Below, piece by piece: positions 4,683 to 63,260 of a DNA stretch of 64,000 nucleotides. Position 1 is the stretch's first letter. Each line of letters starts with the position of its first letter. The DNA comes from Hymenobacter yonginensis (GTDB lineage Bacteria > Bacteroidota > Bacteroidia > Cytophagales > Hymenobacteraceae), in the NCBI RefSeq assembly GCF_027625995.1, contig NZ_CP115396.1, positions 1,612,001 to 1,676,000 on the forward strand, read 5' to 3'. Made by a program: the position numbers and the translations under genes. A model generated the notes under the pieces. The model was not told where the DNA came from and did not search any database. It saw nothing but the letters and a program-made list of their open reading frames with translations.

Positions 4683-4801
4683 AGTGAATGAGCGAGTGAG
4701 TGAATGCGTGAGTTAAGCGGGCGTCACACTATCCTCCGGGATGGGACGTTGAGCTTACTTGCTCATTCACTCACTTGCCCAATCACTCTTTCACTCATTA
4801 A
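4683..4801. repeat. Facing short-unit repeat element, period 8 (trxB / M23 gap)
   Basis: The left arm starts 1 nt after the trxB stop codon and reads as 8-nt units: AGTGAATG, AGCGAGTG, AGTGAATG, CGTGAGTT. The right arm is roughly its reverse complement in 8-nt units: GCTCATTC, ACTCACTT, GCCCAATC, ACTCTTTC, ACTCATTA. A unique spacer of about 40 nt separates them. Together they fill the gap between the two genes. Confidence 0.75.
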
Positions 4802-4823
4802 TTTTTTGCCCTTGCTCCATTTT

Positions 4824-5960
4824 GTGAAACATTGGCTGCTGCCGCTACTACTGATCGGGCTGTTTTTAGGCTTGCCCGGCCAGCTGCTGGCCCAGCGACG
4901 CAAAGCGCCAGAGCCGAAGGCAAAAGCCGGCTCTGCGGGCAAGCGGAGTGATTTCTTCCGCATCAAATCTCCCACCATCCGCTACGTGCGGCCCGATACC
5001 ACTATTCTGATCCAAACGGAGGAGCTGCCTGAGGAGGGCTCCGACGCCGCGAAGTCCATCTTCTTCAACCCCGCCAAAAAGCTGTCCATTGTGAGCGAGG
5101 ACACTACCACGCTCAACGAAGGCGGGCAGGAGATTGTGGAGATGTCGGAAGAGGTGAAAATCGACTCTTCCTGGATTAAGGTGGCCGGCTACTATGCCAT
5201 CTGGGACACCCACAACATCAACCCGTACCGCGTAGACGGCCGCCGGTTGCGCGACACGCTGAACCTGCGCCTGACCGAGCCGGAGCGTCAGCGCTTCGCC
5301 AAAATGCCGTTGGTAAAAACCCCGCTGACCTCGGATTTCGGGTTCCGGGGCTACCGCTGGCACTACGGCGTGGATCTGGACCTGGAAACCGGAGACTCCG
5401 TGAAAGCCGCCTTCGACGGGGTGGTGCGCATTGTGAAGTGGGACGGCTCGGGCTACGGCAACTACGTGCTCATCCGCCACTACAACGGCATCGAAACGCT
5501 GTACGGCCACATGCAGAAGTCGCTCGTGACGCCGGGCACATTTGTGAAGGCCGGCCAGCTGATCGGCCGGGGCGGCAGCACCGGGCGCAGCAGCGGCTCG
5601 CACCTGCACTTTGAGGTGCGCTACGAAGGCAACCCCATCGACCCGGAGCAGATGTACGACTTCCCCGACTACCGGTTGGTGAAGGACAATTTCCAGATTA
5701 CTTCCGGCCTGTTTGCGTACTACAGCAAGTCGCTGAAGTACCGGGGCGGCAGCGTGCCGGGCGCGGCCAGCGGCAGTAGCCGCAGCAGCGCCAGTAGTGG
5801 CAAACCCACCCAGGCGCGCCGCATTGTGTCGCACAAAATCCGCAGCGGCGATACACTGTCGGAAATTGCCGATAAATACGGCGTGTCGCAGGCCCAGATC
5901 CGGCGCCTGAACGGTGGCACCGCCGTGCTGCGCGTGGGCCGGACGCTGCGGATCAAGTAA
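4824..5960 (+). CDS. Secreted M23 metallopeptidase with C-terminal LysM domain
   Basis: This is a probable peptidoglycan endopeptidase acting in the periplasm or envelope. Starting at GTG 4824 gives a good signal peptide (short basic n-region, LLPLLLIGLFLGLPG, then LLAQ); TTG 4806 is the alternative, while the ATG at 4704 would place the signal deep inside. The M23 domain shows HYGVD and HLHFEV, the zinc and catalytic residues, at about residues 175-270, so it looks active. A serine-rich linker leads to a C-terminal LysM (RSGDTLSEIADKYGVS). The length is 378 residues. Confidence 0.9.
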   Translation: MKHWLLPLLLIGLFLGLPGQLLAQRRKAPEPKAKAGSAGKRSDFFRIKSPTIRYVRPDTTILIQTEELPEEGSDAAKSIFFNPAKKLSIVSEDTTTLNEGGQEIVEMSEEVKIDSSWIKVAGYYAIWDTHNINPYRVDGRRLRDTLNLRLTEPERQRFAKMPLVKTPLTSDFGFRGYRWHYGVDLDLETGDSVKAAFDGVVRIVKWDGSGYGNYVLIRHYNGIETLYGHMQKSLVTPGTFVKAGQLIGRGGSTGRSSGSHLHFEVRYEGNPIDPEQMYDFPDYRLVKDNFQITSGLFAYYSKSLKYRGGSVPGAASGSSRSSASSGKPTQARRIVSHKIRSGDTLSEIADKYGVSQAQIRRLNGGTAVLRVGRTLRIK

Positions 5961-5970
5961 ATAGCGTAAG

Positions 5971-6053
5971 AGCTGAATGGTTAAATGGCTGGTCGTTCAA
6001 CGAATCGTCGGAACAGCCAGCCATTTAACCATTCAGTTTTTCAACCATTCAAG
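5971..6053. repeat. Facing short-unit repeat element, period 8 (M23 / bshB1 gap)
   Basis: CTGAATGGTTAAATGGCTGG at 5973-5992 is perfectly complementary to 6017-6036 (20 bp). The units are 8 nt (CTGAATGG, TTAAATGG; on the right CAGCCATT, TAACCATT and CAACCATT). The central palindrome TCGTTCAACGA at 5993-6003 recurs at 26621. The right arm ends 3 nt before the bshB1 ATG. Confidence 0.8.
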
Positions 6054-6056
6054 TAA

Positions 6057-6776
6057 ATGAAACTAGACATCCTGGCTTTTGGGGCGCACCCCGATGATGT
6101 AGAAATGTCAGCAGCTGGTACGCTGCTGGCCGCAGCAGCGGCGGGCAAGAAAATTGGCATCGTCGACTTTACGCGGGGTGAGCTGGGCACGCGTGGCACG
6201 CCCGTTACCCGCGCCGAGGAAGCCGCCAATGCCAGCCGCATTCTGGGCCTGCACGCTCGTGAAAATCTGGGGCTGGCCGACGGCTTTTTCCGCAACGACC
6301 GGGAGCACCAGCTGCCGCTGATTGCGGCCCTGCGGCGCTACCAGCCCGATGTGGTGCTCTGCAACGCCATTACGGACCGCCACCCCGACCACGGCCGCGG
6401 CGCCCAGCTTGCCTCGGATGCCTGCTTTCTGAGCGGCTTACGCATGATTGAGACGCTGGGCGAAGACGGCCAGCCGCAACTGCCCTGGCGCCCCCGCGTG
6501 GTGTACCACTACATCCAGGACCGCCAACTGCCATCTGATTTCGTGGTGGATATTACGCCGCACTGGGTGAAGAAGTGGGAGTCTATTCAGGCCTATCAGA
6601 CCCAGTTTTTCAACCCTAGCCTCGACCAGCCACAGACCTACCTTTCCAGCCAGGAGTTTGGCAAGTTTATGGAAGCCCGCGCCCGCGAGTTTGGCCACCT
6701 GATCGGGGTGGAGTTCGGCGAAGGCTTCACGCGGCAGCGGCCCGTAGGCGTGCGGGAAATTTCGGACTTGATATAG
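6057..6776 (+). CDS. bshB1: N-acetylglucosaminyl-L-malate deacetylase, bacillithiol pathway (BshB1)
   Basis: This zinc-dependent deacetylase of the LmbE/PIG-L family makes GlcN-malate, the second step of bacillithiol synthesis. It has the N-terminal zinc motif AHPDDVE, the TRGELGTRGT stretch typical of BshB1, and RHPDHGRGAQL. The length of 239 residues is normal. It implies that the cell uses bacillithiol as its low-molecular-weight thiol. bshA and bshC are not in the window. Confidence 0.93.
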   Translation: MKLDILAFGAHPDDVEMSAAGTLLAAAAAGKKIGIVDFTRGELGTRGTPVTRAEEAANASRILGLHARENLGLADGFFRNDREHQLPLIAALRRYQPDVVLCNAITDRHPDHGRGAQLASDACFLSGLRMIETLGEDGQPQLPWRPRVVYHYIQDRQLPSDFVVDITPHWVKKWESIQAYQTQFFNPSLDQPQTYLSSQEFGKFMEARAREFGHLIGVEFGEGFTRQRPVGVREISDLI

Positions 6777-6795
6777 CGTAACGCCTTTTACCACC

Positions 6796-6859
6796 AAAAC
6801 GATACCGCCCCGGTCGTCCGACAGCCCTTGCTGCCCGACGACCGGGGCGGTATCGTTTT
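6796..6859. terminator. Bidirectional terminator between bshB1 and the USP gene
   Basis: A perfect 23-bp stem (AAAACGATACCGCCCCGG... with its complement) surrounds an 18-nt loop. The stem carries AAAA on its left and TTTT on its right, so it can serve both converging genes. Confidence 0.85.
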
Positions 6860-6874
6860 GATTGCCGCCAGCCG

Positions 6875-7804
6875 CTAAGCCGGCCGGGCAGATTGGAGGA
6901 GAAGATTGGCTTGCATTTGTTCACGTGTCAGGCGCTCGGCGCACTTGCCGCAGCATACCGTGTAGGCTGGCGTGCCGGCGCTCCGCAGCACCAGCACCGG
7001 AATACGTGTGTGGTAAGCCTGCGTGGTGGTGTAGCAGGCATCGAAGTAGCGCAGTAGCTCGGCGCGGCTGGCGGGCGCTATGATGAGCAGCTGCGCCTGC
7101 TGGCGCGCGCAAAAATCACTCACGCCTTCCAGCGCCGACTCGTCTTCGAGCAGGTGGGTGTGCGCGTGGGGCCAGGTTAGCTGACGCAGGGCACGGGTCT
7201 GGGCCTGCTTGAGAGCAAGGCGCCGGCTGCGCTCGGTGGGGGCGTAGAACTGCACCAGATCCAGGGTACCGGGGAAAGCCTCCGCCAGGGCCGACAGCCG
7301 CGGGAGCGTGTGGAGCGGGAGCGTGCTGAAATCGGCGCTGAACACCAGCCGGCTGGGCAACGGGCGGCGGCCGGGCGGCACCACCAGCACGGGGCAGGCA
7401 ATGAGGTCGGCAATGGCGGCGGCGTGGTTGCCGGGCGCTTCCTGGCGGCCGCAGTCCACGTGCTCCAGGCTCATCACCACCAGTTGGGCGGCGCAGCGCG
7501 CTGCTTCGGCGGCAATGTGGTCGTGGAGGCAGCCACGGAGCACGCGGTAGTGGTAGCGGATGCGGCGGCCGTCGTGGCGGGTAAGCTGCTGGTAGCGCAG
7601 GCGCTCCACGAGGCTGCGCAGGCGCTGTTCTTCCGCGGCCAAGTCGGCACCAGACGGGCTGGTAGGCGCGGCAGCATCGGCCGCGGGCGGCTGGCAGTAG
7701 AGCAGCACAATTTCGGCCGGCCAGCGCACGGCCAGCTTGTTGGCATAGGCGAGCAGGTGTTCGGCCGAAGCCGTGTGGTCGAGGGGAACGAGGAGCGTGT
7801 TCAT
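6875..7804 (-). CDS. Tandem-domain universal stress protein with C-terminal cysteine cluster
   Basis: Starting at ATG 7804 gives 309 residues beginning MNTLLVPLDHTASAEHLLAY. There are two UspA-like domains; the first ends in PVLVVPPG and the second in PVLVLR. A C-terminal tail carries CCGKCAERL, a CxxC that could bind metal or form a disulfide and is absent from the other three USPs here. Such proteins support survival under stress, often by binding nucleotide; the G-2x-G-9x-G motif is not intact. Crp/Fnr-type palindromes lie about 400 nt upstream. Confidence 0.85.
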   Translation of the reverse strand: MNTLLVPLDHTASAEHLLAYANKLAVRWPAEIVLLYCQPPAADAAAPTSPSGADLAAEEQRLRSLVERLRYQQLTRHDGRRIRYHYRVLRGCLHDHIAAEAARCAAQLVVMSLEHVDCGRQEAPGNHAAAIADLIACPVLVVPPGRRPLPSRLVFSADFSTLPLHTLPRLSALAEAFPGTLDLVQFYAPTERSRRLALKQAQTRALRQLTWPHAHTHLLEDESALEGVSDFCARQQAQLLIIAPASRAELLRYFDACYTTTQAYHTRIPVLVLRSAGTPAYTVCCGKCAERLTREQMQANLLLQSARPA

Positions 7805-7846
7805 AAAGCAAGCGTCAGGCAATCGGAAGGAAGCAGGTAGAAGTGA

Positions 7847-8149
7847 CTAGTGGCTACATTGAACGGCCGGTGGTGCAGCCGGCCGGGCTACTTTTGCCGC
7901 AGAGGCGGCGCTCAGATGCGCAATGCCCAGCTTCCGCCGGATAGACGAAAGCTGCTTCCAGCCGGCCTTTGTGGAGATATAGCAGGTGCGCAACCGGTTA
8001 TTTGCCGTAAATACAAACGCTGTTTTGCGTCTGATGCGGTAACTGTGCAATTCCGGGCTTTCGGTCAGCCGGACGCGGGCACCGGGGCAGAAGCTGCCGC
8101 CGTGGACGCAGGCCAGAGAGGTGAGGGGAGTGGCAGGAGCAGTAGGCAT
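7847..8149 (-). CDS. Possible small basic protein (doubtful)
   Basis: A 100-residue frame (ATG 8149; ATG 8176 would add 9 residues) fills the gap between the USP gene and a Crp/Fnr-type palindrome about 55-65 nt upstream of its start, the right place for an activated promoter. The product is rich in Ala, Arg and Ser, has four cysteines and resembles no family I know. The stretch is less GC-rich than its neighbours and could equally be a long USP leader. Confidence 0.25.
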   Translation of the reverse strand: MPTAPATPLTSLACVHGGSFCPGARVRLTESPELHSYRIRRKTAFVFTANNRLRTCYISTKAGWKQLSSIRRKLGIAHLSAASAAKVARPAAPPAVQCSH

Positions 8150-8204
8150 GGGCAAAGGAGCTGATGTCAGCCTCAAAGCTCCTCCGCTTCATGCGCCCAT
8201 CACC

Positions 8205-20142: not shown

Positions 20143-20244
20143 CTGTCATCCTGAGCGGAGCGAAGGATCTTATCACGGGTAGACTACAATAGAACAGTTG
20201 CCGTTCCAGCGTGATGAGGTCCTTCGCTCCGCTCAGGATGACAG
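20143..20244. repeat. REP-like inverted repeat, GTCATCCTGA family
   Basis: Arms CTGTCATCCTGAGCGGAGCG... at 20143-20176 and their near-exact complement at 20211-20244 enclose a 34-nt spacer. The same family appears at 60681-60765 and 61441-61528. It sits upstream of leftward accC. Confidence 0.85.
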
Positions 20245-22318: not shown

Positions 22319-23827
22319 TTACACTACCTTAATGAGGTAGTAGTTTTTCTTGCCCTTCTGCGCCACCACGTACTTGTCGTGCAGCAGCGGCAGCTCGGCG
22401 GCCTGCTGCTCCAGCGTAGCCTTGGCGCGGTTCAAACTCACGCCGCCGGCCTGAATCATCTTCTTAGCCTCGCCTTTGGAGGGGAAGATGACGGCGTTGG
22501 TGGCCTCGCTCAGCAGGCTGATGACGTTGTGCTCCGAGAGGCTGGCGCGGGGCACCTCCACGTGGGGCACGCCGGCAAATACGTCGAGTAGCGTGGCTTC
22601 GTCGAGCGAAGCCAGCTCCCCGCCGCCGAACAGCACCTGCGAGGCCGCCACGGCCGCCTCGTAGGCCGCCTGGCCGTGCACGCGGATGGTCACGTCCTGG
22701 GCCAGGGCTTTCTGCAGGGTGCGCAGGTGCGGGGCCTGGGCGTGCTCAGCTTCCAGCGCTTCGATTTCCGGCTGGCTCAGCAGCGTGAACACGCGGATGA
22801 GGCGGGGCACGTCGGCGTCGGCGGCGTTGAGGAAGAACTGGTAGAACTGGTACGGGCTCGTCATGGCGCCATCGAGCCACACGGTGCCGGTTTCGCTCTT
22901 GCCGTACTTGGTGCCGTCGGACTTAGTGATGAGCTGGCCGGTGAGGGCGTAGGCCTTGCCCTCGCCGCCCGACATGCGCCGGATCAGCTCGGTGCCGGTG
23001 GTGATGTTGCCCCACTGGTCACTGGCGCCCATCTGCAGGGTGGTGCCCAACTCTTTGTAGAGGTGGAAGAAGTCGTAGCCCTGCAGCAGTTGGTAGCTAA
23101 ACTCGGTGTAGCTGATGCCAGTCTCTTCTAAATTCTCCCAAATACTTCCCTTGAAAGCCTCTCCAAATTTCTCGCTTTTCGCTTCAAAATCAGGATCAGA
23201 GAGCTGCTGTACAAGTGAAAGAATACCTAACGTAAACTGAATTTCTTTCACTGCCTCGTCTACTTTCCCTTCATTGATAAGCTCAACAGCAGAGTTAAGG
23301 TTGGAAGAAGCAGTGTCAATTGTGTTGTGAATTCTTCCAACGGTTTTGTTGATGCCTATTCGTTTCTGCACAGAATCTTTAGACATCATGTAGTTCACGG
23401 TAAGGTGCTTGCCCACTTCGCGCAGAAACTGCAGGAAGTTGAAGTCCTTGAACCAGTCGTAGTTGTTCACCACCCGCGCGCCGGTGGGCGAGTCGTCGAA
23501 CACCAGGAACTTCTCTAGCTGGGCCTGAATACCGGCCTGGTTGCGGCGCAGGGCTTCTTCATCGAGCAGGTTGCGCTCGGCCGATTTGCCCGATGGGTCG
23601 CCAATCATGCCAGTGGCACCGCCCACCAGGGCCAGGGGCCGGTGCCCGGCCCGCTGCAGGTGCACCAGCAGCATGATGGTGGCCAGGTTGCCGATGTGCA
23701 AAGAAGGCGCGGTGGGGTCGAAGCCGATGTAGCCGGTGATGGGCGCGTTCTTCAGCAGGTGCTCCTCGGTGCCGGGCATCATGTCGTGAAACATGCCCCG
23801 CCAGCGCAGTTCGTCTATTAAGTTCAA
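22319..23827 (-). CDS. tyrS: Tyrosyl-tRNA synthetase with an extra internal domain
   Basis: This class I synthetase charges tRNA-Tyr. The frame starts at TTG 23827 ([15 protein letters not shown]), the normal family N-terminus, with the HIGH-type HIGN, the KMSKS-type KYGKS and a C-terminal S4 domain (ending [10 protein letters not shown]). At 502 residues it is about 70-80 longer than the usual 420-430. The excess lies between KDSVQKRI and [13 protein letters not shown], residues about 157-236, where related enzymes have only a few residues. That block is much more AT-rich than the rest of the gene. Both active-site motifs are intact, so the enzyme is probably functional. Confidence 0.95.
23116..23386 (-). 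other. AT-rich block encoding the extra TyrS segment
   Basis: Three counted 60-nt lines (23161-23340) have 25, 22 and 25 G+C, about 40%, against 41 of 60 at 22921-22980 in the same gene. Atypical AT-rich codons begin at the conserved MSKDSV (ATGTCTAAAGATTCTGTG), before the extra residues, and end at ENLEET just before GISYTEF. The frame stays open throughout. The encoded segment ([20 protein letters not shown] ... [20 protein letters not shown]) looks helical and is of no family I recognise. Confidence 0.85.
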
Positions 23828-24025
23828 GGGTGAAGTTGTGAAGTGGTGAAGTTGTGAATTAGGCGGTGGTTGTAGGATAAAGACACGACAGACACGGCCA
23901 ACTCACGCAAGTAAGAGGCGCAAAGGTAAAAAGGCCTGTGGTACATTTGCAGTCCAAGTGAAAGCCGCGGCGGGATTGCGCCGTGGGGCCTTCACAACTT
24001 CATCACTTCACAACTTCACCCTTGA
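23824..24025. repeat. Facing short-unit repeat element, period 8, spanning both divergent start codons
   Basis: The right arm (23991-24025) reads TTCACAAC, TTCATCAC, TTCACAAC, TTCACCCT, TGA. The left arm (23824-23858) is its complement with one mismatch over 35 nt. Each arm runs into a start codon: both tyrS and holA begin at the TTG of CCCTTGA. Each mRNA therefore carries the same 5' sequence up to its start. Confidence 0.85.
23922..23949. promoter_or_regulatory. Back-to-back -7 elements for tyrS and holA
   Basis: TACATTTG (23942-23949, rightward) and TACCTTTG read on the minus strand (23922-23929) both match TAnnTTTG exactly. They lie 12 nt apart between the two repeat arms, giving overlapping divergent promoters. 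Confidence 0.6.
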
Positions 24026-26542: not shown

Positions 26543-26544
26543 CC

Positions 26545-26657
26545 AGCAGCAACGGCGTAGAGACGCAAGACCTTGCGTCACTACGCCGTTGCTGATGTTG
26601 TTAAAAATTCACGCTTCGAGTCGTTCAACGACGAGACGCAACATGTTGTGTCTTTAC
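26545..26657. repeat. REP-like hairpin, GTAGAGACGCAA family, plus partial copy
   Basis: CAGCAACGGCGTAGAGACGC (26545 on) pairs with GCGTCACTACGCCGTTGCTG (ending 26594). A second, shorter unit GAGACGCAACATGTTGTGTC lies at 26633-26652. Between them is TCGTTCAACGA (26621-26631), the same 11-mer found in the loop of the element at 5971. Elements of this look are widespread in Hymenobacter and in cyanobacteria. Confidence 0.7.
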
Positions 26658-28652: not shown

Positions 28653-29486
28653 CTAATACCGCTCCTCGCCGCGGGCCGAGCTGAGGTCCAGCAGATACTC
28701 GCAGGCTTTATGGAAACCGTCCGTTTCATCAGGGCTACGGCGTGCCACCATATTATAGCCGCTGGCCTGATGGGCTTCGAGCAGCCAGTAGGCACCATCT
28801 AGCATAAGAACGGGCTGGCAGGCAGATGTACGTTGGAACTGGTATTGTGCCAATAGCTGCCGAAAATGCTGCAGCTGTTGATGCGTGACCGGCAAGACAG
28901 TATCAGCCGAGTCTATGAGTTGTGCCCGGCGTTTTCCTTCAGCTACGCTCCTAATAAATTCAGGATCGGCCATCGTCTGAGTATAATATTTCTGTGCACG
29001 AGTCCGCTCGCCGGCGGTTACGGTGGGTGATAGGCTATCCGGATGCTGGACAGTTAGCATATGAAAGCCCGGCTTCTTGTCGAGAACCTGAGTACGCAGC
29101 GAAGCCCCTTCTTCATTGGCACTGAGCGTCAGAAGTACTGGTAAGTGAAAGGAGCGAAGCCAAAGAAATCGATACGTATCCGTGCCTAGGTAATAATTGG
29201 ACAGGACTGGTGCTTTGAAATACGTCAGCGCATAGGAGGCATATTTCATTTCGTCAGTACAGTTCATCACACTTTCGTCGATGACGTACGAAGTCGGGCG
29301 CTTGCTCTTAGAAACATAAGTGGCAGGCAGTGAATCCGCCGCCGGAAAATAGAACGTGGTGGAGTCCCGTGGATGGCCCTGGGCATCGGAAATGGCCGGG
29401 TTTTGCGGGTAGCTGCCCGCAGAATCAGTGGGAGCGGAGCAGCCGGCCAGCAGCAGGAGCGGGAGCAGCAAACAGGAGCGTTGCAT
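28653..29486 (-). CDS. Hypothetical lipoprotein
   Basis: Starting at ATG 29486 gives 277 residues with a clear lipoprotein signal (MQRSCLLLPLLLLAGCSAPT; lipobox LAGC). No domain is recognised. The mature part has few cysteines and an even polar composition. It is convergent with the preceding small gene and its GC content is lower than that of its neighbours. Confidence 0.7.
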   Translation of the reverse strand: MQRSCLLLPLLLLAGCSAPTDSAGSYPQNPAISDAQGHPRDSTTFYFPAADSLPATYVSKSKRPTSYVIDESVMNCTDEMKYASYALTYFKAPVLSNYYLGTDTYRFLWLRSFHLPVLLTLSANEEGASLRTQVLDKKPGFHMLTVQHPDSLSPTVTAGERTRAQKYYTQTMADPEFIRSVAEGKRRAQLIDSADTVLPVTHQQLQHFRQLLAQYQFQRTSACQPVLMLDGAYWLLEAHQASGYNMVARRSPDETDGFHKACEYLLDLSSARGEERY

Positions 29487-34680: not shown

Positions 34681-34763
34681 TTAGTGCTTGGTGCCTGGTG
34701 CTTAGTGCATAGGTCGTGCAACGACCAGTTACTAAGCACCAAGCACCAGGCACTACGCACTAA
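34681..34763. repeat. Facing short-unit repeat element, period 7
   Basis: Left units are TTAGTGC, TTGGTGC, CTGGTGC, TTAGTGC; right units are CTAAGCA, CCAAGCA, CCAGGCA, CTACGCA. The loop is itself a hairpin, GGTCGT-GCA-ACGACC. The element fills the space between the barrel stop codon and the next ATG. Confidence 0.85.
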
Positions 34764-36005: not shown

Positions 36006-36006
36006 C

Positions 36007-36740: not shown

Positions 36741-36829
36741 GAGCAACTGAGTAGCGGAGTAACTGAGTAGGTTTTCCTTCTGCTCAGTTGTCTGCACATC
36801 CACTCAGTTACTCCGCTACTCAGTTACTC
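36741..36829. repeat. Facing short-unit repeat element, period 8
   Basis: A 27-bp stem with one mismatch (36741-36767 against 36803-36829) is built of the units CTGAGTAG, CGGAGTAA, CTGAGTAG. It begins 2 nt after the exbB stop codon and ends 1 nt before the exbD ATG. Its sequence is closely related to the element at 46531. Confidence 0.88.
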
Positions 36830-37244: not shown

Positions 37245-37375
37245 GGGTGATGAGGTATATGAAGTGAAGACGTGAAGAGGAAGCGGGCGAGGAAGTTCAT
37301 CTGGCCTCTTGTTCTGAACCATTAGTACTTTACCTCCCTTACCTAGTCACCTGATTTCTTCATCACCTCATCACC
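37245..37375. repeat. Facing short-unit repeat element, period about 8
   Basis: The left arm GGTGATGAGGTATATGAAG (37245 on) faces CTTCATCACCTCATCACC (ending 37375). The right side reads CCTTACCT, AGTCACCT, GATTTCTT, CATCACCT, CATCACCG. It fills the exbD-tonB gap and contains no frame. Confidence 0.75.
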
Positions 37376-38335: not shown

Positions 38336-38420
38336 GTAGCGCGAACTTTGTAGTTCGCGCCTTCGCGCCGTTGCAGTTATCTGAACGGTGCGGGGGCGCG
38401 CACTACAAAGTGCGCGCTAC
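38336..38420. repeat. REP-like inverted repeat, GTAGCGCGAACTTTG type
   Basis: GTAGCGCGAACTTTGTAG... (38336-38360) and the facing GCGCGCACTACAAAGTGCG... (38396-38420) form an imperfect 25-bp stem just before folC. Each arm also holds its own small palindrome (GCGAACTTTGTAGTTCGC). Confidence 0.75.
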
Positions 38421-39741: not shown

Positions 39742-39846
39742 GTCGTTATTTGTTGTTCGTCGTTCGTTTTTCGGCGACTCATTGAACAATGAAAAACTAC
39801 CGGCCCATTTGCTTCGAAAAACGAACGACGAACAACAAATAACGAC
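39742..39846. repeat. Facing short-unit repeat element with perfect 32-bp stem, period 7
   Basis: 39742-39773 and 39815-39846 are exact reverse complements over 32 nt. The right arm divides as CGAAAAA, CGAACGA, CGAACAA, CAAATAA, CGAC. It begins 4 nt after the folC stop codon and ends 3 nt before the trmB GTG. The 41-nt loop is unique. Confidence 0.92.
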
Positions 39847-46220: not shown

Positions 46221-46541
46221 ATGTTGCAAATGATGATTTCGAAGCGTCTGGGGCGTCGCCAGTTCCACTTCACCGTGCAGGGAGCCAATCTGCACGAAGT
46301 CGTAACCGAGTATGAGCGGCTCAGCTTTCCGGATGTGGCCAAATGCGGCATCTGCGGTTCCGACAACCTCGACCTGACCGCCCGCGTGGCCCAGGACAAG
46401 TTCAAATACACCTCGCTCCGCTGCCTGGACTGCCGCGCCGACGTCACGTTCGGCAAGCGCCAGGAAGACGACCAGACGTATTTCCTGCGTAAAAACGAAG
46501 AAGGCAAGCTCGACTGGCGCGCCTATGACAAGAGTAACTGA
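46221..46541 (+). CDS. Hypothetical zinc-ribbon protein
   Basis: ATG 46221 gives 106 residues. Two pairs, CGICGS and CLDC, about 32 residues apart, form a probable zinc ribbon in the middle, with a charged C-terminus (EEGKLDWRAYDKSN). It may bind nucleic acid, but no family is certain. Its last codons and TGA stop lie inside the left arm of a facing repeat element. Confidence 0.7.
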   Translation: MLQMMISKRLGRRQFHFTVQGANLHEVVTEYERLSFPDVAKCGICGSDNLDLTARVAQDKFKYTSLRCLDCRADVTFGKRQEDDQTYFLRKNEEGKLDWRAYDKSN

Positions 46542-46747
46542 GTAGTGGAGTAACTGAGTGCTGTGTGGTACTCACAGGATAGAAGAGGCGCCGGCGGCAA
46601 CGTCCGGCGCCTTTTTTTGTGGAAACCGGCCGGCGGTAGAATACCAGACGGGGGCAGTTGGTCGTTTGGGTGAGCAGCCTGAAATGCCTGGCATGCCAGC
46701 GGCTAACTTTTATTGTATACTCCGCTACTCCACTACTCAGTTACTCT
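46531..46747. repeat. Facing short-unit repeat element, period 8, overlapping a stop codon
   Basis: 46531-46553 (AGAGTAACTGAGTAGTGGAG...) is complementary to 46725-46747 with one mismatch. The units are CTGAGTAG, TGGAGTAA, CTGAGTGC. The arm supplies the TGA of the zinc-ribbon gene, and a full terminator sits in the spacer. Its sequence closely matches the element at 36741. Confidence 0.85.
46585..46618 (+). terminator. Terminator in the zinc-ribbon / rpe gap
   Basis: AGGCGCCGG, a 9-nt loop and CCGGCGCCT are followed by seven T. Confidence 0.9.
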
Positions 46748-46769
46748 TTACTCTTTCTACCTTCGCGGT

Positions 46770-53089: not shown

Positions 53090-53090
53090 G

Positions 53091-53144
53091 TTCGTTGTGT
53101 GTAGTTTGTAGCTAATACACGATTCACAAACTACACACAACGAA
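53091..53144. repeat. Facing short-unit repeat element, period 7
   Basis: TTCGTTGTGTGTAGTTTGT (53091-53109) is perfectly complementary to 53126-53144 (19 bp, 16-nt loop). The period-7 pattern ACACAAC, GAACCAC, GCCCTAC, GTCCTAC continues to 53160, through the first bases of the crp stop codon. Confidence 0.85.
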
Positions 53145-53158
53145 CCACGCCCTACGTC

Positions 53159-53722: not shown

Positions 53723-53728
53723 TTACAG

Positions 53729-53855
53729 GGAGGTGAGGATGTGAATGGAATGGTGGGACTGAAATACTGCAACTACAGTCGGTTCAGACCGCCAAGAAAC
53801 GAAGAAAGCAGGCTCGCGGCCTGCTTTCTTCTAAATTCACCTGTCACCTCACTGC
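53729..53855. repeat. Weak facing short-unit repeat element, period about 8
   Basis: GGAGGTGAGGATGTGAAT (from 53729) faces ATTCACCTGTCACCTCAC (from 53835), with some mismatches. It spans the whole gap between the crp start and the DUF2911 stop codon, with a terminator inside. Confidence 0.6.
53801..53831 (-). terminator. Terminator of the DUF2911 gene
   Basis: GAAGAAAGCAGGC, a short loop and GCCTGCTTTCTTC form a stem that reads into T-rich sequence leftward, 25-55 nt after the DUF2911 stop codon. Confidence 0.7.
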
Positions 53856-54773
53856 CTAATACGCTTTGCCCTGCCACTCAATGAGGGCGGTGCGCATGGT
53901 GGGGAGCTGGGATTTGAAGGCTACATCGTCTTTGTCGCCCATCTTGATGGCCTTGCGGCCGTACACGATGGCCGTGTCGTAATCGAGCTTGGACGCCAGC
54001 AGGCGCGCCTTGATCCAGTTGTTGGTGTACACGTCGCGCAGCCGGATAGACTCGTTGATGAAATACAGGGCCCGTTCGGCCTGCAGGTTGTTTTGCACCA
54101 GATAGTCGGCCGCCTGGGCCAGCAGCTGCCAGTCGCCGGGGCGCTGGGCCACGGCCTTTTCGATGCCGGCCACCACCTTGGCCTGCACATTCGTGTCAAT
54201 GTAGAGGCTGACGGTTTTCTTTTCCCAGCTCAGGTTGAGGTGGGCCGAGCCGGGCTTCACGTCGGAAAACCAGTAAAGCAGCGTTTCGTGGAAGGCCGAA
54301 ACTTCGGGTACCACCGGCACGCGCAGCACGTCGTCCTTCGGGTCGTAGCCCTCGGCGCCCCAATGCGTGGTCACGCGGTTGAACACCATGTCCCAGTCTT
54401 GGTCGGAGCGGGGGAAGACGTAGAACGAGTACTTGCCGGCCGGCAGGGTTTTGCCGTTCACTCGCACGGTATCGGCGAAGGTGATGACCGTGTTTTCGTT
54501 GGCGCCCGCCCGCCAGATTTGGCCGTAGGGCACCAGGCCTTCCCAGATAACGCGGTTACGGACGCTGGGAGCATGGTAGTCCAGGTTCACTTCCGACAGG
54601 CCGATGGTGTGCGAGAGCAGCACATGGGGGCTGGCCTGCGGCAAGGGCAGCAGCGAGGCCGGCGGCATAGCCGGGGCAGGTCCGGTCTGGGCCAGGGCGC
54701 CGGAAATAGCCCCCACGCTCAGCAGCAGGCCGCAGATACCGGGAACGACAAGTTGAACGAAAGAACGACGCAT
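53856..54773 (-). CDS. Secreted DUF2911 protein with C-terminal TPR-like helices
   Basis: The 305-residue product has a signal peptide (RRSFVQLVVPGICGLLLSVG ... ALAQT), a DUF2911 domain (VNLDYHAPSVRNRVIWEGL, WRAGANENTVITF, LPAGKYSFYVFP) and helical repeats (DYLVQNNLQAERALYFINES). DUF2911 proteins are common in Bacteroidetes and have no known biochemical role. It is divergent from the his operon. Confidence 0.88.
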   Translation of the reverse strand: MRRSFVQLVVPGICGLLLSVGAISGALAQTGPAPAMPPASLLPLPQASPHVLLSHTIGLSEVNLDYHAPSVRNRVIWEGLVPYGQIWRAGANENTVITFADTVRVNGKTLPAGKYSFYVFPRSDQDWDMVFNRVTTHWGAEGYDPKDDVLRVPVVPEVSAFHETLLYWFSDVKPGSAHLNLSWEKKTVSLYIDTNVQAKVVAGIEKAVAQRPGDWQLLAQAADYLVQNNLQAERALYFINESIRLRDVYTNNWIKARLLASKLDYDTAIVYGRKAIKMGDKDDVAFKSQLPTMRTALIEWQGKAY

Positions 54774-55286: not shown

Positions 55287-56138
55287 ATGCTCCGTCTGGC
55301 CATCCAGAAATCGGGCCGCTTAAGCGAAGACTCCCAGAACCTGATTCGGGAGTGCGGCATCAGCTTCCTTGCGGCTTCCAGCAAGCTCAAAACCGAAGCC
55401 ACCAACTTCCCCCTCGAAATCCTCTACCTGCGCGACGACGATATTCCCGGCTACGTGCAGGACGGCGTGGCCGACCTGGGCATCGTGGGCCAGAACGTGC
55501 TGGTGGAAGCCGGCTTCCCCAACCTGGAAGTGGAAGGCCTAGGCTTCAGCAAGTGCCGCCTGAGCCTGGCCGTGCCCCGCGCCGCCACCTACGACTCCAT
55601 TGAGGATTTGCAGGGCGTGAACATTGCTACCTCGTACCCGCGCATCCTGGGCGACTACCTCACGGAGCGCGGCGTGAAGGCCAATCTGCACACCATCAGC
55701 GGCTCGGTGGAAATTGCCCCCAGCATCGGGCTGGCCGAGGCCATCTGTGATATTGTGAGCAGTGGCTCCACGCTGCTGGGCAACGGCCTGCGTGAGGTGG
55801 AAACTGTGTTCCGCTCCGAGGCCGTGCTCATTGCCAACCAGAACCTGAGCGCCGAGAAAAAGGAGCTGCTCGAGCAGCTGCAGTTCCGGATGCAGGCCGT
55901 GCGCCGCGCCCGTCGCAACAAGTACATCATCCTCAACGCCCCCGTGGCGGCCCTGGATGCGGTAAAGCAGCTGCTGCCCGGCATCAAGTCGCCCACCGTT
56001 ACGCCGCTGGCCGAGGAAGGCTGGGTATCGGTGCAGTCGGTGGTAAACGAGGACGACTTCTGGCACATCACCAGCCAGCTCAAAGCCGTCGGCGCCGAAG
56101 GGATTCTGGTTCTCCCGATTGAGAAAATGATTAGTTGA
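55287..56138 (+). CDS. hisG: ATP phosphoribosyltransferase, long form
   Basis: This is the first enzyme of histidine synthesis (ATP + PRPP). At 283 residues it is the long form with its own C-terminal ACT-like regulatory domain (near 210-283), the site of histidine feedback inhibition. Visible are MLRLAIQKSGRLSEDSQNLI, LGIVGQNVL, EVEGLGFSKCRLSLAVP and IVSSGSTLLGNGLREVE. It is the first enzyme gene of the operon behind the leader peptide. Confidence 0.96.
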   Translation: MLRLAIQKSGRLSEDSQNLIRECGISFLAASSKLKTEATNFPLEILYLRDDDIPGYVQDGVADLGIVGQNVLVEAGFPNLEVEGLGFSKCRLSLAVPRAATYDSIEDLQGVNIATSYPRILGDYLTERGVKANLHTISGSVEIAPSIGLAEAICDIVSSGSTLLGNGLREVETVFRSEAVLIANQNLSAEKKELLEQLQFRMQAVRRARRNKYIILNAPVAALDAVKQLLPGIKSPTVTPLAEEGWVSVQSVVNEDDFWHITSQLKAVGAEGILVLPIEKMIS

Positions 56139-56231
56139 ATGGCTTAATGGCTGAATTGTTAAATGGTTGAATTGTGCCAGGACTTCCTGAACGACCAACC
56201 ATTTAACCATACAACAATTCATCAATTCAAC
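56134..56231. repeat. Facing short-unit repeat element, period 8 (hisG/hisD)
   Basis: Left units are TTGAATGG, CTTAATGG, CTGAATTG, TTAAATGG, TTGAATTG; right units are CAACCATT, TAACCATA, CAACAATT, CATCAATT, CAAC. The left arm begins within the last bases of hisG (TTGA contains its TGA stop) and the right arm ends 3 nt before the hisD ATG. Confidence 0.85.
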
Positions 56232-57536: not shown

Positions 57537-57550
57537 GTATAGGATTAACA

Positions 57551-57716: not shown

Positions 57717-57718
57717 TC

Positions 57719-59505: not shown

Positions 59506-60618
59506 ATGAAAAAAGTACTCTTCATTGACCGCGACGGGACCATCCTCATCGAGCCGCCGACGGATTTTCAGGTGGACGCGCTGACGCGAGAAAAATTTCA
59601 GTTTGTGCCCGGTGCCATCACCGGCCTCTCGCGCATTGCCCGCGAGCTGGATTACGAGCTGGTGCTGGTGAGCAACCAGGACGGCCTCGGCACCGCCAGC
59701 TACCCGGAGGATACCTTCTGGCCAGCGCACAATATGATGTTCGACGTGCTGCGCTCGGAAGGAGTGGAGTTCGTGCGCGAGCACATCGACCGGAGCTTCC
59801 AGCACGAGAACCTGCCCACCCGCAAGCCCGGCACCGGCATGCTCACCCAGTACCTGGGCGAGGGCAGCGGCTATGACCTCACCAACTCCTTCGTCATCGG
59901 CGACCGGCTGACCGACGTGGAGCTGGCCCAGAACCTGGGCTGCCAGTCCATCCTGCTGAAGCCGGAAGGGGAGGGCGACGACCGCGCCGCGCTGACCACC
60001 ATGAGCTGGGAAAAAATATACCAGTTTCTGCGGCTGCCCGCCCGCACCGCCGTGGTACAACGCGACACCAACGAAACCAAAATCAGCATCGAGCTGAACC
60101 TTGACGGCAACGGCCGCCCCGAGATGCACACCGGCCTGGGCTTCTTCGACCACATGCTCGACCAGCTCAGCAAGCACTCGGGCGTGGATATGAAAATCAC
60201 CGTACAGGGTGACCTGCACATCGACGAGCACCACACCATTGAGGACACGGCCATTGCCCTGGGCGAAGCCTTCACCCAAGCCCTCGGCGACAAGCGCGGC
60301 CTGGCCCGCTACGGCTTCCTGCTGCCCATGGACGACGTGCTGGCCCAGGCCGCCATCGACTTCTCGGGCCGCCCCTGGATTGTGTGGGACGCCGAGTTCA
60401 AGCGCGAGAAAGTAGGGGATATGCCCTGTGAAATGTTTTACCATTTCTTCAAGAGCTTCTCCGACGCCGCCCGCTGCAACCTCAACATCAAAGCCGAGGG
60501 CCAGAACGAGCACCACAAGATTGAAGCCATTTTCAAGGCCGTAGCCAAGTCCATCAAAATGGCCCTGGTGCGCGACGCCGGCCGCATGGAAATCCCCAGC
60601 ACGAAAGGTGTTTTGTAG
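59506..60618 (+). CDS. hisB: Bifunctional histidinol-phosphatase / imidazoleglycerol-phosphate dehydratase
   Basis: ATG 59506 gives 370 residues (TTG 59482 would add 8). The N-terminal HAD phosphatase has [13 protein letters not shown] and a Gly-Asp acidic motif in [12 protein letters not shown]. The C-terminal dehydratase has [12 protein letters not shown], the manganese motif [15 protein letters not shown], and [15 protein letters not shown]. It performs steps 6 and 8 of the pathway. Confidence 0.97.
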
Positions 60619-60812
60619 TTTATCCATTTGTATAAACAAATGGATAAAGAGCTGGTTACGCGTGATTTGCACGCACAACTGTCATCCTGACTGAAGCGAA
60701 GATTCTTACATCTTGCACCGATTCGTGCTACCGTAATAAAGGCTCTCGGTTCCAGTCAGGATGACGATTTATAAGCTAAACACTCTTTAAACATTTGTAT
60801 AAACAAAAGAGT
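60619..60812. repeat. Composite repeat between hisB and hisH
   Basis: Right after the hisB stop codon, TTTATCCATTTG-TATAAA-CAAATGGATAAA is a perfect 12-bp hairpin (60619-60648). A GTCATCCTGA-family inverted repeat follows (60681-60709 and 60748-60765). Then ACTCTTT...AAAGAGT (60782-60812) repeats the 16-mer CATTTGTATAAACAAA, found at both 60625-60640 and 60792-60807. Confidence 0.8.
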
Positions 60813-60841
60813 AAACGACGTCCTTCACTCGATATGTTCAA

Positions 60842-61432
60842 ATGGAAATAGCCATCATTGATTACAAAGGCGGCAACGTGCAGTCGGTGCTGTTTGCGCT
60901 GGAACGACTGGGCGTGCAGGCCACGCTCACGGCCGACCACGACGTGATTCGCCGCGCCGACAAAGTGCTGTTCCCGGGTGAGGGCGAGGCCGCCTCCGCC
61001 ATGCGGGAGCTGCGCGCCCAGGGCCTGCACGAGCTGCTGCCCACGCTCACGCAGCCGTTCCTGGGCATCTGCCTGGGCATGCAGCTGCTGGGCCGCCACA
61101 CCCAGGAGGGCGGCGGTACCGAGCTGCTCGGGATTCTGCCTTTCGACGTGGTGCGGTTCCCGGCCACGCCGGAGTACAAAGTGCCGCACATGGGCTGGAA
61201 CAACCTGCAGGCGCTGCGCGGTCCGCTGTTCGAAGGCCTCAGCGCCGAGGACTACGTGTACTTCGTGCACAGCTACTACGCCCCGGTGGGTGAGTACACC
61301 ATTGCCGAGGCCGCGTACCCCGCGCCGTTCAGCGCCGCCGTGCAGCACGAGAACTTCTACGCCGTGCAGTTCCACACTGAAAAGAGCGGCTCCGTCGGCA
61401 CCCGTATCCTGGAAAACTTTCTCAAGCTGTAA
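60842..61432 (+). CDS. hisH: Imidazole glycerol phosphate synthase, glutaminase subunit
   Basis: The 196-residue class I glutamine amidotransferase supplies ammonia to HisF. It has the oxyanion and Cys region LGICLGMQLLG, VPHMGWNNL, and the His-Glu pair VQFHTEKSG. The start MEIAIIDYKGGNVQSV is standard. Confidence 0.97.
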   Translation: MEIAIIDYKGGNVQSVLFALERLGVQATLTADHDVIRRADKVLFPGEGEAASAMRELRAQGLHELLPTLTQPFLGICLGMQLLGRHTQEGGGTELLGILPFDVVRFPATPEYKVPHMGWNNLQALRGPLFEGLSAEDYVYFVHSYYAPVGEYTIAEAAYPAPFSAAVQHENFYAVQFHTEKSGSVGTRILENFLKL

Positions 61433-61440
61433 GCCCTGTC

Positions 61441-61528
61441 TGTCATCCTGAACGGAGTGAAAGACCTTATCAAACCAGAACGAATTGTTACAACTTGATA
61501 AGGTCCTTCGCTCCGCTCAGGATGATAG
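61441..61528. repeat. REP-like inverted repeat, GTCATCCTGA family
   Basis: TGTCATCCTGAACGGAGTG... (61441-61471) faces ...CTCCGCTCAGGATGATA (61497-61528) around a 25-nt spacer, filling the hisH-hisA gap. Confidence 0.85.
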
Positions 61529-61550
61529 GTGAACTGTTCTTAAATCCAAC

Positions 61551-62267
61551 ATGGAAATCATTCCCGCAATTGACCTCATCAACGGCCAGTGCGTGCGCCT
61601 GACGGAGGGCGACTTTGCTCAGCAAACCACCTACGACGCCGACCCGCTGGCCGTGGCCCAACGCTTCGAGGCCGCCGGCGTGAAGCGTCTGCACCTGGTG
61701 GACCTCGATGGGGCCCGCGCCAAGCGCCCCGTAAACCTGCCCGTGCTGGAGCGCATTGCCCGCCACACCAGCCTGCACATCGACTTCGGGGGGGGGCTGC
61801 AGAGCGAGGACGCCGTACGCCAGGCCTTCGACGCCGGAGCCCGGCAGATTACCGCCGGCAGCATTGCCGTGCGCGAGCCCGAAACCGTGAACGGCTGGCT
61901 CCGCGCCTTTGGGGCCGACCGCATCATCATCGGGGCCGACTACCGCGACAACCACATTTCCATCAACGCCTGGGCCGAGCAGAGCGAGCGGACCCTGCGC
62001 GAGTTCGTGGAGGGCTACCTGGCCAGCGGAGCCACCACCTTCATCTGCACCGATGTGAGCAAGGACGGCAAGCTCCAAGGCCCGTCACTGGCAACCTACA
62101 CCGAACTGCGGGAGCAACTGCCCGCTGCCCGCCTCATTGCCAGCGGCGGCGTGACCACCATTGCTGACGTGGAGGCCCTGGCCGCCGTGGGCATGCACGG
62201 GGCTATCATCGGCAAAGCCATCTACGAAGGCACCATCACGCTGGAGCAGCTGCAGCCCTGGCTATGA
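61551..62267 (+). CDS. hisA: ProFAR isomerase (HisA)
   Basis: This TIM-barrel isomerase acts on the fourth pathway intermediate. At 238 residues it has MEIIPAIDLINGQCVRL with the catalytic Asp, the phosphate-binding DFGGGLQ and SGGVTTIADVEAL, and ICTDVSKDGKLQGP with the second Asp. Confidence 0.97.
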   Translation: MEIIPAIDLINGQCVRLTEGDFAQQTTYDADPLAVAQRFEAAGVKRLHLVDLDGARAKRPVNLPVLERIARHTSLHIDFGGGLQSEDAVRQAFDAGARQITAGSIAVREPETVNGWLRAFGADRIIIGADYRDNHISINAWAEQSERTLREFVEGYLASGATTFICTDVSKDGKLQGPSLATYTELREQLPAARLIASGGVTTIADVEALAAVGMHGAIIGKAIYEGTITLEQLQPWL

Positions 62268-62271
62268 TTTC

Positions 62272-62380
62272 GTTTTTAAGTTGTCAGTTGTTCGTTGCTT
62301 GTCCACTCTCGATGTAGTCAGCCGGCAATAAATCATACAATCACTGACAACTGATAACGAACAACTAACAACTAAAAACC
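62272..62380. repeat. Facing short-unit repeat element, period 7 (hisA/hisF)
   Basis: The right arm reads exactly in sevens: TGACAAC, TGATAAC, GAACAAC, TAACAAC, TAAAAAC. The left arm reads AGTTGTC, AGTTGTT, CGTTGCT. It starts 4 nt after the hisA stop codon and ends 4 nt before the hisF ATG. Confidence 0.85.
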
Positions 62381-62384
62381 AAGC

Positions 62385-63143
62385 ATGCTAACCAAACGAA
62401 TTATACCCTGCCTCGACGTGAAGGATGGGCGCACCGTGAAAGGGGTGCGCTTCGAGGGCCTGCGCGACGCCGGCGACCCGGTGGCCCTGGCCGCCCGCTA
62501 CGCCCGCGAAGGGGCCGACGAGCTGGTGTTCCTCGATATCACCGCCACCAACCAGAAACGCGCCACGCTTGTGGCCCTGGTGCGCGACGTGGCCCGGGAG
62601 CTGGACATTCCGTTCACCGTGGGCGGTGGCATCGGCACCGTATCCGATGTGGAGGCCCTGCTCATGAACGGAGCCGACAAAGTGAGCATTAACTCGGCTG
62701 CTCTGGCCCGCCCTGAGCTGATTGACGAGCTGGCCGCCCGCTTCGGGTCCCAGTGCATTGTGGTGGCCGCCGATGCCCGCTACCACGACGCCGACGGCTG
62801 GCAGATCTACACCCGGGCCGGTACCCACAACACCGGCCGCGACGCGGTGCAGTGGTGCCGGGAAGCCGCCGAGCGGGGCGCGGGTGAAATCCTGCTGACC
62901 TCCATGAGCAACGACGGCACCAAGGACGGCTTTGCGCTTGACATCACCGGGGCCGTAAGCCGGGCCGTAACCATTCCGGTGGTAGCCTCGGGCGGCGCGG
63001 GCTCCAAGCAGGACTTCACCAACGTGTTCCAGCAGGCCCACGCCGATGCCGGCCTCGCCGCCAGCATCTTCCACTTCGGCGAAATCGGTATCCGCGAGCT
63101 GAAAGAACACCTGCGCCAGGACGGCATTGCCGTGCGGCTGTAA
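62385..63143 (+). CDS. hisF: Imidazole glycerol phosphate synthase, cyclase subunit
   Basis: The 252-residue TIM barrel forms IGP and AICAR with HisH. It has [16 protein letters not shown] with the catalytic Asp, [32 protein letters not shown] with the second Asp, and VASGGAGS. Confidence 0.97.
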
Positions 63144-63149
63144 TTTTTG

Positions 63150-63260
63150 AGTGATGAGGTGATGGGGTGAATAGTGATGAGGTAGCTCGTCAATCTGTTT
63201 TACTTCTACATCAATGTCGGAATTCTGACGCCTTACCTCATCACCTCTTCACCTCATTAC
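63150..63260. repeat. Facing short-unit repeat element, period 7 (hisF/hisIE)
   Basis: Right units are TACCTCA, TCACCTC, TTCACCT, CATTACT; the left arm is GTGATGA, GGTGATG, GGGTGAA, TAGTGATGAGG. It fills the gap from 6 nt after the hisF stop codon to 7 nt before the hisIE ATG. Confidence 0.82.

What the first reader, a model, noticed from the sequence alone, without database searches (positions are those of the whole stretch)
4683..63260. A family of gap-filling intergenic elements made of facing 7- or 8-nt degenerate tandem units
At least twelve gaps (4683, 5971, 23824, 34681, 36741, 37245, 39742, 46531, 53091, 56134, 62272, 63150; weaker at 53729) share one design. A left arm begins at the stop codon, a spacer (mostly 15-75 nt) follows, and a right arm ends at the next start codon. 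Each arm divides into 3-5 units of 7 or 8 nt, with the same period on both sides. Stems reach 32 bp without mismatch, yet sequences differ between most elements, so this is not one dispersed repeat. Stems without a T-run argue against simple terminators. The units recall the heptamer STRRs of heterocystous cyanobacteria, here in facing pairs. Possible explanations are a generating process (slippage with template switching, or a mobile unit), mRNA end protection, or a leader signal.
Basis: partly seen in the sequence, partly recalled or inferred. Interest (0 to 1): 0.8.

Follow-up and report, generated by a model that had tools for sequence, protein, structure and literature searches.

The report
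Fast-swapping repeat brackets between bacterial genes
In Hymenobacter bacteria many gaps between genes are bracketed by two facing copies of a short stuttering DNA word, and in closely related species the same gap often carries a different word, so something keeps rewriting these gaps and how it does so is unknown.

Summary
The window is Hymenobacter (ExbB 99% identical to Hymenobacter sp. BT190). All 13 named gaps self-pair beyond shuffles; 12 show a 7/8-nt period. New:
(1) Arms form word families dispersed in each genome; unlinked sites can share an arm exactly (28 nt). Of 25 same-genome unlinked pairs with matching arms (19 elements), one also shares its spacer.
(2) The exbB-exbD gap holds a periodic element in 55 of 80 loci, but word and even period change between close relatives: at least 39 family changes among 66 labelled gaps, shuffled mean 46. 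Spacers change with the family: recognisable in 0 of 17 different-family and 6 of 8 same-family close pairs.
(3) Coding flanks of swapped gaps are about as diverged as the genome average, though more than flanks of unswapped gaps.
(4) One apparent gain filled a 1-nt gap with about 93 nt, adding a new stop.
(5) Arms lie flush with genes, their outward strand C-poor and stop-rich.
Nearest precedent: facing GGGAATC heptamers in Xanthomonas. I read this as repeated whole-gap rewriting from a shared word pool; the writer is unknown and allele exchange contributes.

The parts
4680..4790 (.). facing element, GTGAATGA-type 8-nt units; arms 4680-4713 / 4757-4790
   Evidence: by eye another family in G001, same type in G002 and G077
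5968..6041 (.). facing element, ATGGTTAA-type 8-nt units; arms 5968-5998 / 6011-6041
   Evidence: kept in G077; changed or decayed in G001
23824..24025 (.). facing element in a divergent gap, GTGAAGTT 8-nt units, 132-nt spacer with promoter-like TAnnTTTG motifs (motif recalled, seen by eye)
   Evidence: another family in G077, G001 and G002; the window allele recurs in other Hymenobacter genomes
34681..34763 (.). facing element, TAGTGCT 7-nt units
   Evidence: kept in L001 and G077
36741..36829 (.). facing element between exbB and exbD, AGTAACTG 8-nt units
   Evidence: replaced in L001 by an AGTTGTC 7-nt element, kept in G077
37246..37375 (.). facing element between exbD and the next gene, GGTGATGA-type 8-nt units
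   Evidence: kept in L001 with an 8-nt indel; replaced in G077 by a TTCGTTT-type 7-nt element
39742..39846 (.). facing element, TTCGTTT-type 7-nt units, 32-nt perfect arms
   Evidence: replaced in L001, kept in G077
46530..46748 (.). facing element, AGTAACTG 8-nt units, 159-nt spacer holding a terminator-like hairpin; arm covers the last codons of the upstream gene
   Evidence: shared with G077 and G019; not seen in G001 and G002
53090..53145 (.). facing element, GTTCGTTG-like 7-nt units, between minus-strand genes
   Evidence: kept in G077
53723..53856 (.). weak facing element, GGTGA/TCACC units; G077 has a long one-sided unit expansion here
56134..56231 (.). facing element, ATGGCTGA-type 8-nt units; three families at this site among window, G077, G001 and G002
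62274..62378 (.). facing element, AGTTGTC 7-nt units
   Evidence: kept in G001, not seen in G077 and G002
63145..63266 (.). facing element, GTGATGAG 8-nt units; arms 63145-63170 / 63241-63266
   Evidence: kept in G077; G001 and G002 carry an AGTTGTC-type element with near-identical flanks

Best explanation
These are 'brackets': two facing copies of one arm of about 20-40 nt, made of several degenerate 7- or 8-nt words and placed flush on both gene edges around an arbitrary spacer. SHOWN: orthologous gaps often carry brackets of different word families in close relatives, with arms and, at the gap tested across the genus, spacer changed together and coding flanks about as similar as the genome average. 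Arm sequences, but mostly not spacers, recur at unlinked sites and across species. A bracket apparently was gained in a 1-nt gap. INFERRED: a DNA-writing event at the gap (repair of a break, or insertion followed by loss of the old sequence) puts the same arm on the 3' end of each side, copied from a pool of family sequences, and joins the ends over filler. The same extension on both 3' ends would by itself give X...rc(X) with a constant outward strand. Arms survive where they are harmless: outward strands are C-poor and full of stops that rotate through the frames (7 and 8 are not multiples of 3). Any mRNA-hairpin role is secondary and optional.
For: Arms without spacers: 25 same-genome unlinked pairs with matching arms, spacer matching in 1; these are 19 distinct elements, 17 of the pairs within H. 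psychrotolerans, whose sites were fetched because they resemble the window's element. 10 of the 20 fetched places hold paired AGTAACTG-type arms, with spacers of 6-86 nt. Brackets can enclose REP-like elements (L130, L144, and the L014 group) or a terminator-like hairpin (46530). Replacement: 55 of 80 loci periodic at exbB-exbD; 39 family changes among 66 labelled gaps; same-family share 3 of 4 pairs below 0.06 and 6 of 33 at 0.10-0.15; spacer recognisable in 0 of 17 different-family and 6 of 8 same-family pairs below distance 0.12, and in 2 of 37 and 5 of 9 at 0.12-0.20. Local: identity within 100 nt of swapped gaps 0.958 for G077 (overall 0.947) and 0.928 for G001 (overall 0.908). Apparent gain with a new stop in L004 and L006. 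Word over the gene end at 46530. Polarity: left arm G>C in 135 of 148, 24 of 28 in the set not centred on exbB. Stops per arm 3.3 against 2.2 shuffled; 61 of 126 arms stop all three frames.
Against: No enzyme, template or intermediate was found. Flanks of swapped gaps are less alike than flanks of unswapped gaps (within 100 nt 0.928 against 0.975 for G001, 0.958 against 0.970 for G077; few sites), as imported tracts would also give. G077's changed element at 37245 has no close arm donor in its own genome (best other match 87% over 30 nt). Whole-element copying is seen once (L125/L128). Presence at 62274 and the allele at 23824 disagree with the kinship suggested by identity, so allele exchange contributes. 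Parts of the spacer look retained by eye at 4683, 5971 and 23824 although arms differ. 8 compensatory changes suggest some pairing pressure or arm-to-arm correction. The start-poverty of the facing arm (0.26 against 0.34 shuffled) is mostly base composition.
Confidence: 0.37

Rival explanations
1. Non-autonomous mobile hairpins (MITE or REPIN-like) that transpose whole; spacers diverge or are swapped after insertion.
For: Many matches of one family per genome; one pair with matching spacers, L125/L128; apparent gain in a 1-nt gap.
Against: 24 of 25 same-genome arm-matching pairs show no common spacer, although spacers change only about 1.4 times faster than arms where the family is kept (88/723 against 83/930). 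No target duplication evident by eye at the gain. G001 has 15 C-poor periodic elements in 400 kb and no Y1_Tnp match at E <= 0.001; of ten Y1_Tnp loci examined in Hymenobacter genomes none holds a C-poor periodic bracket, though one hairpin in L218 reaches lag 8 at 0.54.
Confidence: 0.2
2. Gap alleles are exchanged between Hymenobacter lineages by homologous recombination in the flanking genes; each lineage has its own favoured words.
For: The window's allele at 23824 is shared with other genomes and not with G077, G001 or G002; presence at 62274 is incongruent; flanks of swapped gaps are less alike than those of unswapped ones; family abundance differs by genome.
Against: Flanks of swapped gaps lie close to the genome average at 100-600 nt (G077 0.958, 0.939 and 0.944 against 0.947; G001 0.928, 0.911 and 0.914 against 0.908). 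For L001's exb element, the nine best other matches read carry at most 11 of 28 in local spacer score. G077's 37245 element has no match above 72% over its length among 120 genomes; these searches score only the best few candidates per genome and one search's list is cut.
Confidence: 0.2
3. A functional intercistronic hairpin (mRNA end protection or translational coupling) kept by selection, with words made locally by slippage and template switching between arms.
For: High occupancy of one operon gap, arms somewhat slower than spacer and 8 compensatory pairs, visible unit expansion.
Against: Matching arms at unlinked genes and in different species. 26 broken pairs; G-U share 15 of 41 is near my own rough neutral expectation of about a third. 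8 of 81 exbB-exbD gaps show no inverted repeat of score 9. Elements in convergent gaps.
Confidence: 0.18
4. Concerted evolution: ectopic gene conversion homogenises arms of one family within a genome.
For: Arms of one family are alike within H. psychrotolerans.
Against: At sites that keep their family, arms change more slowly than spacers; the same arm recurs in different species.
Confidence: 0.05

Closest known systems
G-rich GGGAATC heptamer repeats of Xanthomonas and GGGGA(C/T)T repeats of Nostoc (PMC4692102; sections 10 and 14 and passages read)
   Same: Degenerate 7-nt words, mostly four units, intergenic, 186 and 183 per genome; 70 and 75 cases of facing pairs; nearer to the 5' neighbouring ORF (28 nt) than to the next (160 nt); [quoted passage not shown]
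   Different: One G-tract word studied for its quadruplex potential; here many words, 7 or 8 nt, and the word at a place is often different in close species.
TAACTGA heptamer direct repeats (PMC4679880; abstract, section 10 and passages read)
   Same: Intergenic 7-nt words, reported in five Bacteroidetes; the AGTAACTG family contains TAACTGA.
   Different: Those are mainly direct repeats before start codons, with one inverted case in the main genome; here the period is 8, arms face each other, and the start-side arm is the reverse complement.
Repeats of the Nostoc PCC 7120 hyp-operon, and LTRR named there (PMC2408588; passages read)
   Same: Word ttgtcagttgtcagttgtca, 44 appearances, is the AGTTGTC family of this report.
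   Different: Listed as single conserved sequences; facing arrangement and turnover not described in the passages seen.
REP/REPIN and CGTC/GTAG-tagged palindromes (PMC3733652; passages read)
   Same: Small dispersed intergenic repeats, often dimers, with DNA between partners.
   Different: Each REP is itself a tagged palindrome; here arms are tandem words, untagged, and no RAYT link was found in the genomes checked.

Membership tests
Facing heptamer arrays (Xanthomonas GGGAATC kind) | Tandem degenerate short words in facing intergenic pairs, G-richer strand outward from the gene | tested here: met
Facing heptamer arrays (Xanthomonas GGGAATC kind) | One G-tract heptamer able to form a quadruplex | tested here: not met
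   Many words, by eye mostly without G-tracts, periods 7 and 8; G-tract words GGGACTTGG occur at 56134 in G001 and G002
TAACTGA repeats | Direct 7-nt repeats of TAACTGA in forward orientation before a start | tested here: not met
   8-nt period, start-side arm reads CAGTTACTC
REP/REPIN with RAYT | Association with a Y1 transposase gene | tested here: not met
   0 Y1_Tnp matches in G001 and G005 of 12 genomes searched; ten Hymenobacter Y1_Tnp loci hold no C-poor periodic bracket (one L218 hairpin has lag 8 at 0.54)
REP/REPIN with RAYT | GTAG or CGTC tag and palindromic unit | tested here: not met
   arms read are tandem words, by eye untagged; no formal tag scan
MITE | Fixed terminal and internal sequence | tested here: not met
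   no common spacer in 24 of 25 same-genome pairs
MITE | Target-site duplication | tested here: inconclusive
   one apparent gain (L004, L006), judged by eye
Intrinsic terminator | GC-rich hairpin followed by a T-run | tested here: not met
   no run of 4 T after the 3' arm on the gene strand at 13 of 13 sites, up to 8 nt looked at
Translational coupler or mRNA stabiliser | Effect on expression or transcript ends | not testable with these tools
   needs experiment

The most novel reading that the evidence does not exclude
A bacterial end-writing activity, telomerase-like in polarity, adds template-copied C-poor repeats to both 3' ends of breaks between genes; Hymenobacter gaps are scars of this, rewritten roughly once per 0.1 substitutions per site.
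Probability: 0.12. Interest if true: 0.95.

Novelty: new variant of a known kind. Interest (0 to 1): 0.68.

Why it matters
Heptamer repeats are in print for cyanobacteria, Xanthomonas and Beggiatoaceae; the parts of those papers read here offer no established origin. One orthologous gap in 80 related loci now shows many word families in place of each other at measurable rates, with an empty-site comparison, so the origin of such repeats becomes directly testable. If the gaps are rewritten in place, a local DNA-writing process in bacteria is unaccounted for, and intergenic comparison in such genomes needs care.

Tried and rejected
Single dispersed repeat: rejected, several families. Terminators: other inverted repeats differ (41 of 79 in convergent gaps, 36 co-directional; many terminator-like by eye). 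RAYT mobilisation: no link found. Spacer motif CGTTCT/GTTCTG: weak (11 of 122 spacers against about 2 expected, orthologs not removed). Stop codon as part of the word at the exb gap: weak (23, 18 and 19 of 55 positions match one unit on, expected 0.31). The stop codon goes with period (7: TAA 24, TAG 6; 8: TAG 19, TAA 5, TGA 1), kinship not corrected. Spread beyond Hymenobacter: 20 other Bacteroidota stretches (about 398 kb) gave one candidate, with stricter cut-offs than used for Hymenobacter. A plasmid search with L019's gap gave one Pantoea record and a second found nothing; the repeat filter may hide such matches. Literature: (Hymenobacter, inverted repeats, intergenic) found 0 papers; one search listed 10 of 967, none with the word Hymenobacter; some searches gave the papers cited. 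Absence from print is claimed for nothing wider.

Limits: the 80 loci were picked by ExbB similarity. Gene calls come from a home-made caller. The tree rests on about 930 nt of exbB and exbD. In one search, L042/L043 was skipped for low identity, leaving 18 comparisons, three of which share L018. In one search several pairs printed as 'unlinked, different genome' are orthologous sites that I had not labelled; they are not used. Swapped and kept sites were set by eye; its G002 list includes 39738, where I saw no element in G002, so the G002 figures are not used.
Full report
WHAT WAS CHECKED. The window is Hymenobacter: its ExbB is 99% identical to that of Hymenobacter sp. BT190 (L001). No whole genome is held for the window. 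One search shows inverted repeats at 11 of the 13 named gaps among the 25 it prints of 45. One search finds all 13 self-complementary beyond shuffles (0-4 of 300 reach them) and lag 7/8 beyond shuffles at 12 (0-1 of 300; 53729 gives 6 of 300). Over 1049 gaps of the window and 80 loci, 130 hold a period-7/8 inverted repeat of score 14 or more; 3147 shuffles gave none. Among inverted repeats of score 18 or more with arms of at least 20 nt and autocorrelation of at least 0.6, best lags are 7 (47), 8 (29) and all others together 5.

ANATOMY. Median element 91 nt, median spacer 35 nt (126 elements). The strand read outward from a gene is C-poor: left arms average 8.7% C and 31% G, G>C in 135 of 148. 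An inverted repeat reads the same on both strands, so this is a property of the element and not of transcription. Both edges lie within 25 nt of a gene in 19 of 28, against 3 of 34 REP-like and 17 of 79 other inverted repeats. Elements lie in co-directional, divergent and convergent gaps. Seemingly unpaired arms also occur (L129, L139, L140).

FAMILIES. The window's AGTAACTG element has 53 matches in G003 and 25 in G001 (both strands and both arms counted) and one marginal match in G002. L001's AGTTGTC element finds matches in 72 of 120 Hymenobacter genomes at E <= 0.001. L125 and L126 share a 28-nt arm exactly while their spacers differ. Of 25 same-genome unlinked pairs with matching arms, 1 shares its spacer; the pairs involve 19 elements and 17 pairs are within G003. 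Of 20 G003 places fetched for arm similarity, 10 hold paired AGTAACTG-type arms; others hold one arm or other hairpins.

TURNOVER AT ONE GAP. One search printed the exbB-exbD gap in 80 loci and the window. One search finds a periodic element in 55 of 80 and any inverted repeat of score 12 or more in 61. The cut-off misses weaker ones such as L001's. orders them by a tree; families change between close relatives. labels 66 of 81 gaps with nine families and needs 39 changes; shuffled labels need 46.2 on average, minimum 39. The same-family share is 3 of 4 pairs below distance 0.06, 5 of 12 at 0.06-0.10, 6 of 33 at 0.10-0.15, and 0.09-0.23 beyond; the spacer is recognisable (z >= 3) in 6 of 8 same-family and 0 of 17 different-family pairs below 0.12, and in 5 of 9 and 2 of 37 at 0.12-0.20. 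So arms and spacer mostly change together; some same-family pairs (for example L016/L022) also differ in spacer. 8 of 81 gaps show no inverted repeat of score 9 (L008, L010, L011, L024, L040, L046, L064, L067), L067 having a 17-nt gap, and L017 has 474 nt of other sequence.

TURNOVER IN THE WINDOW. Against L001/G001 the element is of another family at 4683, 23824, 36741, 39742, 53090, 56134 and 63145, kept at 34681, 37245 and 62274, similar at 53729, changed or decayed at 5971, and not seen at 46530 (judged by eye). Against G077 (about 94% identical) it differs at 23824, 37245 and 56134, is not seen at 62274, and is kept, with some divergence, at the other nine. At 63145 and 56134, G001 and G002 agree with each other against the window; at 63145 G077 agrees with the window. 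At 37245 the window and L001 agree against G077, so that change lies on G077's side if kinship is as identity suggests. At 56134 three families occur among four relatives. Flank identity within 100 and 600 nt of swapped gaps is 0.958 and 0.944 for G077 (overall 0.947; 3 sites) and 0.928 and 0.914 for G001 (overall 0.908; 7 sites). For kept gaps it is 0.970 and 0.952 (6 sites) and 0.975 and 0.933 (3 sites). So there is no distant import tract in view, but swapped flanks are somewhat less alike than kept ones. At 46530 the arm replaces the last codons of the upstream gene and gives a new stop; G077 and G019 share this allele, G001 and G002 do not.

AN APPARENT GAIN. The gap at 36006 is TAG-C-ATG in the window, L001, L002, L003 and L005. 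In L004 and L006 it holds 94 or 93 nt with AGTTGTT-type facing arms, with CTAAGC or CTAGC before the ATG and a TAA at the left; I see no target duplication. In six relatives (L014, L015, L018, L019, L023, L037) TAGTGC-type words bracket a CGTC-type REP-like hairpin in the same gap.

AGAINST THE IN-PLACE READING. The window's allele at 23824 matches three genomes over the full gap at 83-84% and two more at 67-69%. One search aligns 191-211 nt of the gap in seven fetched genomes (75-90% of aligned letters) but only 33 nt in G077, G001 and G002. This points to exchange or retention of old alleles. At 4683, 5971 and 23824 parts of the spacer look alike by eye although arms differ. G077's 37245 element has no close donor in its own genome and no match above 72% over its length in 120 genomes. 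L001's exb spacer is not carried by the nine best other matches (at most 11 of 28 in local score; three of the nine beat most shuffles, 1, 4 and 10 of 300 reaching them). These genome searches score only the best few candidates per genome.

FUNCTION. Pair counts over 18 same-family comparisons: 386 unchanged, 26 broken, 15 to G-U, 10 mended, 8 compensatory, 6 other, 14 with gaps; arms change at 0.089 and spacers at 0.122. This is weak evidence for pairing and no sign of a strict need. Outward arms carry 3.3 stops (2.2 shuffled), 61 of 126 stop all frames, and facing arms carry 0.26 start codons (0.34 shuffled), so the words make harmless gene borders. This may be a filter on what survives; orthologous copies were not removed.

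KNOWN RELATIVES. The nearest printed case is the Xanthomonas GGGAATC repeats, with 70 and 75 facing cases and 83% shared places (PMC4692102, sections 10 and 14). The AGTTGTC word is listed in Nostoc (PMC2408588, passages). TAACTGA repeats (PMC4679880, abstract and section 10) share a word but not the arrangement. REP families (PMC3733652, passages) resemble other hairpins of the window. That such words face each other in cyanobacteria is my recollection and was not tested (searches gave nothing).

VERDICT. Real, striking and quantified: a new variant of facing short-word arrays, whose outstanding property is replacement between word families at the same gap. The writing mechanism is inferred and open.

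Noticed in passing
window 20143-20244, 60681-60765, 61443-61525: REP-like inverted repeats GTCATCCTGA..., also seen in the G001 and G002 stretches; similar ones sit inside brackets in L130 and in the L014/L015/L018 group.
   Followed up: partly
window 26544-26597; L219 and L225: Hairpin with GTAGAGACGCAA; two GTAGAGACGCAATATTTTGCGTCTC hairpins lie in each of the Y1_Tnp loci L219 (G002) and L225 (G077), a possible RAYT-REP pair.
   Followed up: partly
window 38336-38420: Dispersed inverted repeat GTAGCGCGAACTTTGTAGTTCGCG, full in the window, shortened in L001, also in G001, G002 and L133.
   Followed up: no
window 53723-53856 against G077: G077 carries a roughly 85-nt one-sided expansion of TCACCTG/TCATCACC units, a likely slippage event.
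   Followed up: no
window 62268-62384 against G077 and G002: G077 and G002 have about 350 nt more here, possibly a small gene, and no bracket seen; the window and G001 have the bracket.
   Followed up: no
window 28800-29340: Stretch strongly diverged from L001 amid otherwise similar DNA.
   Followed up: no
L158 8170-8302 and L080 exb gap: Facing period-7 repeats outside Hymenobacter: CCATGGTCGATGGTCC type in G218 and a TGAAAGATAAAAGAAGAA arm in Adhaeribacter.
   Followed up: no
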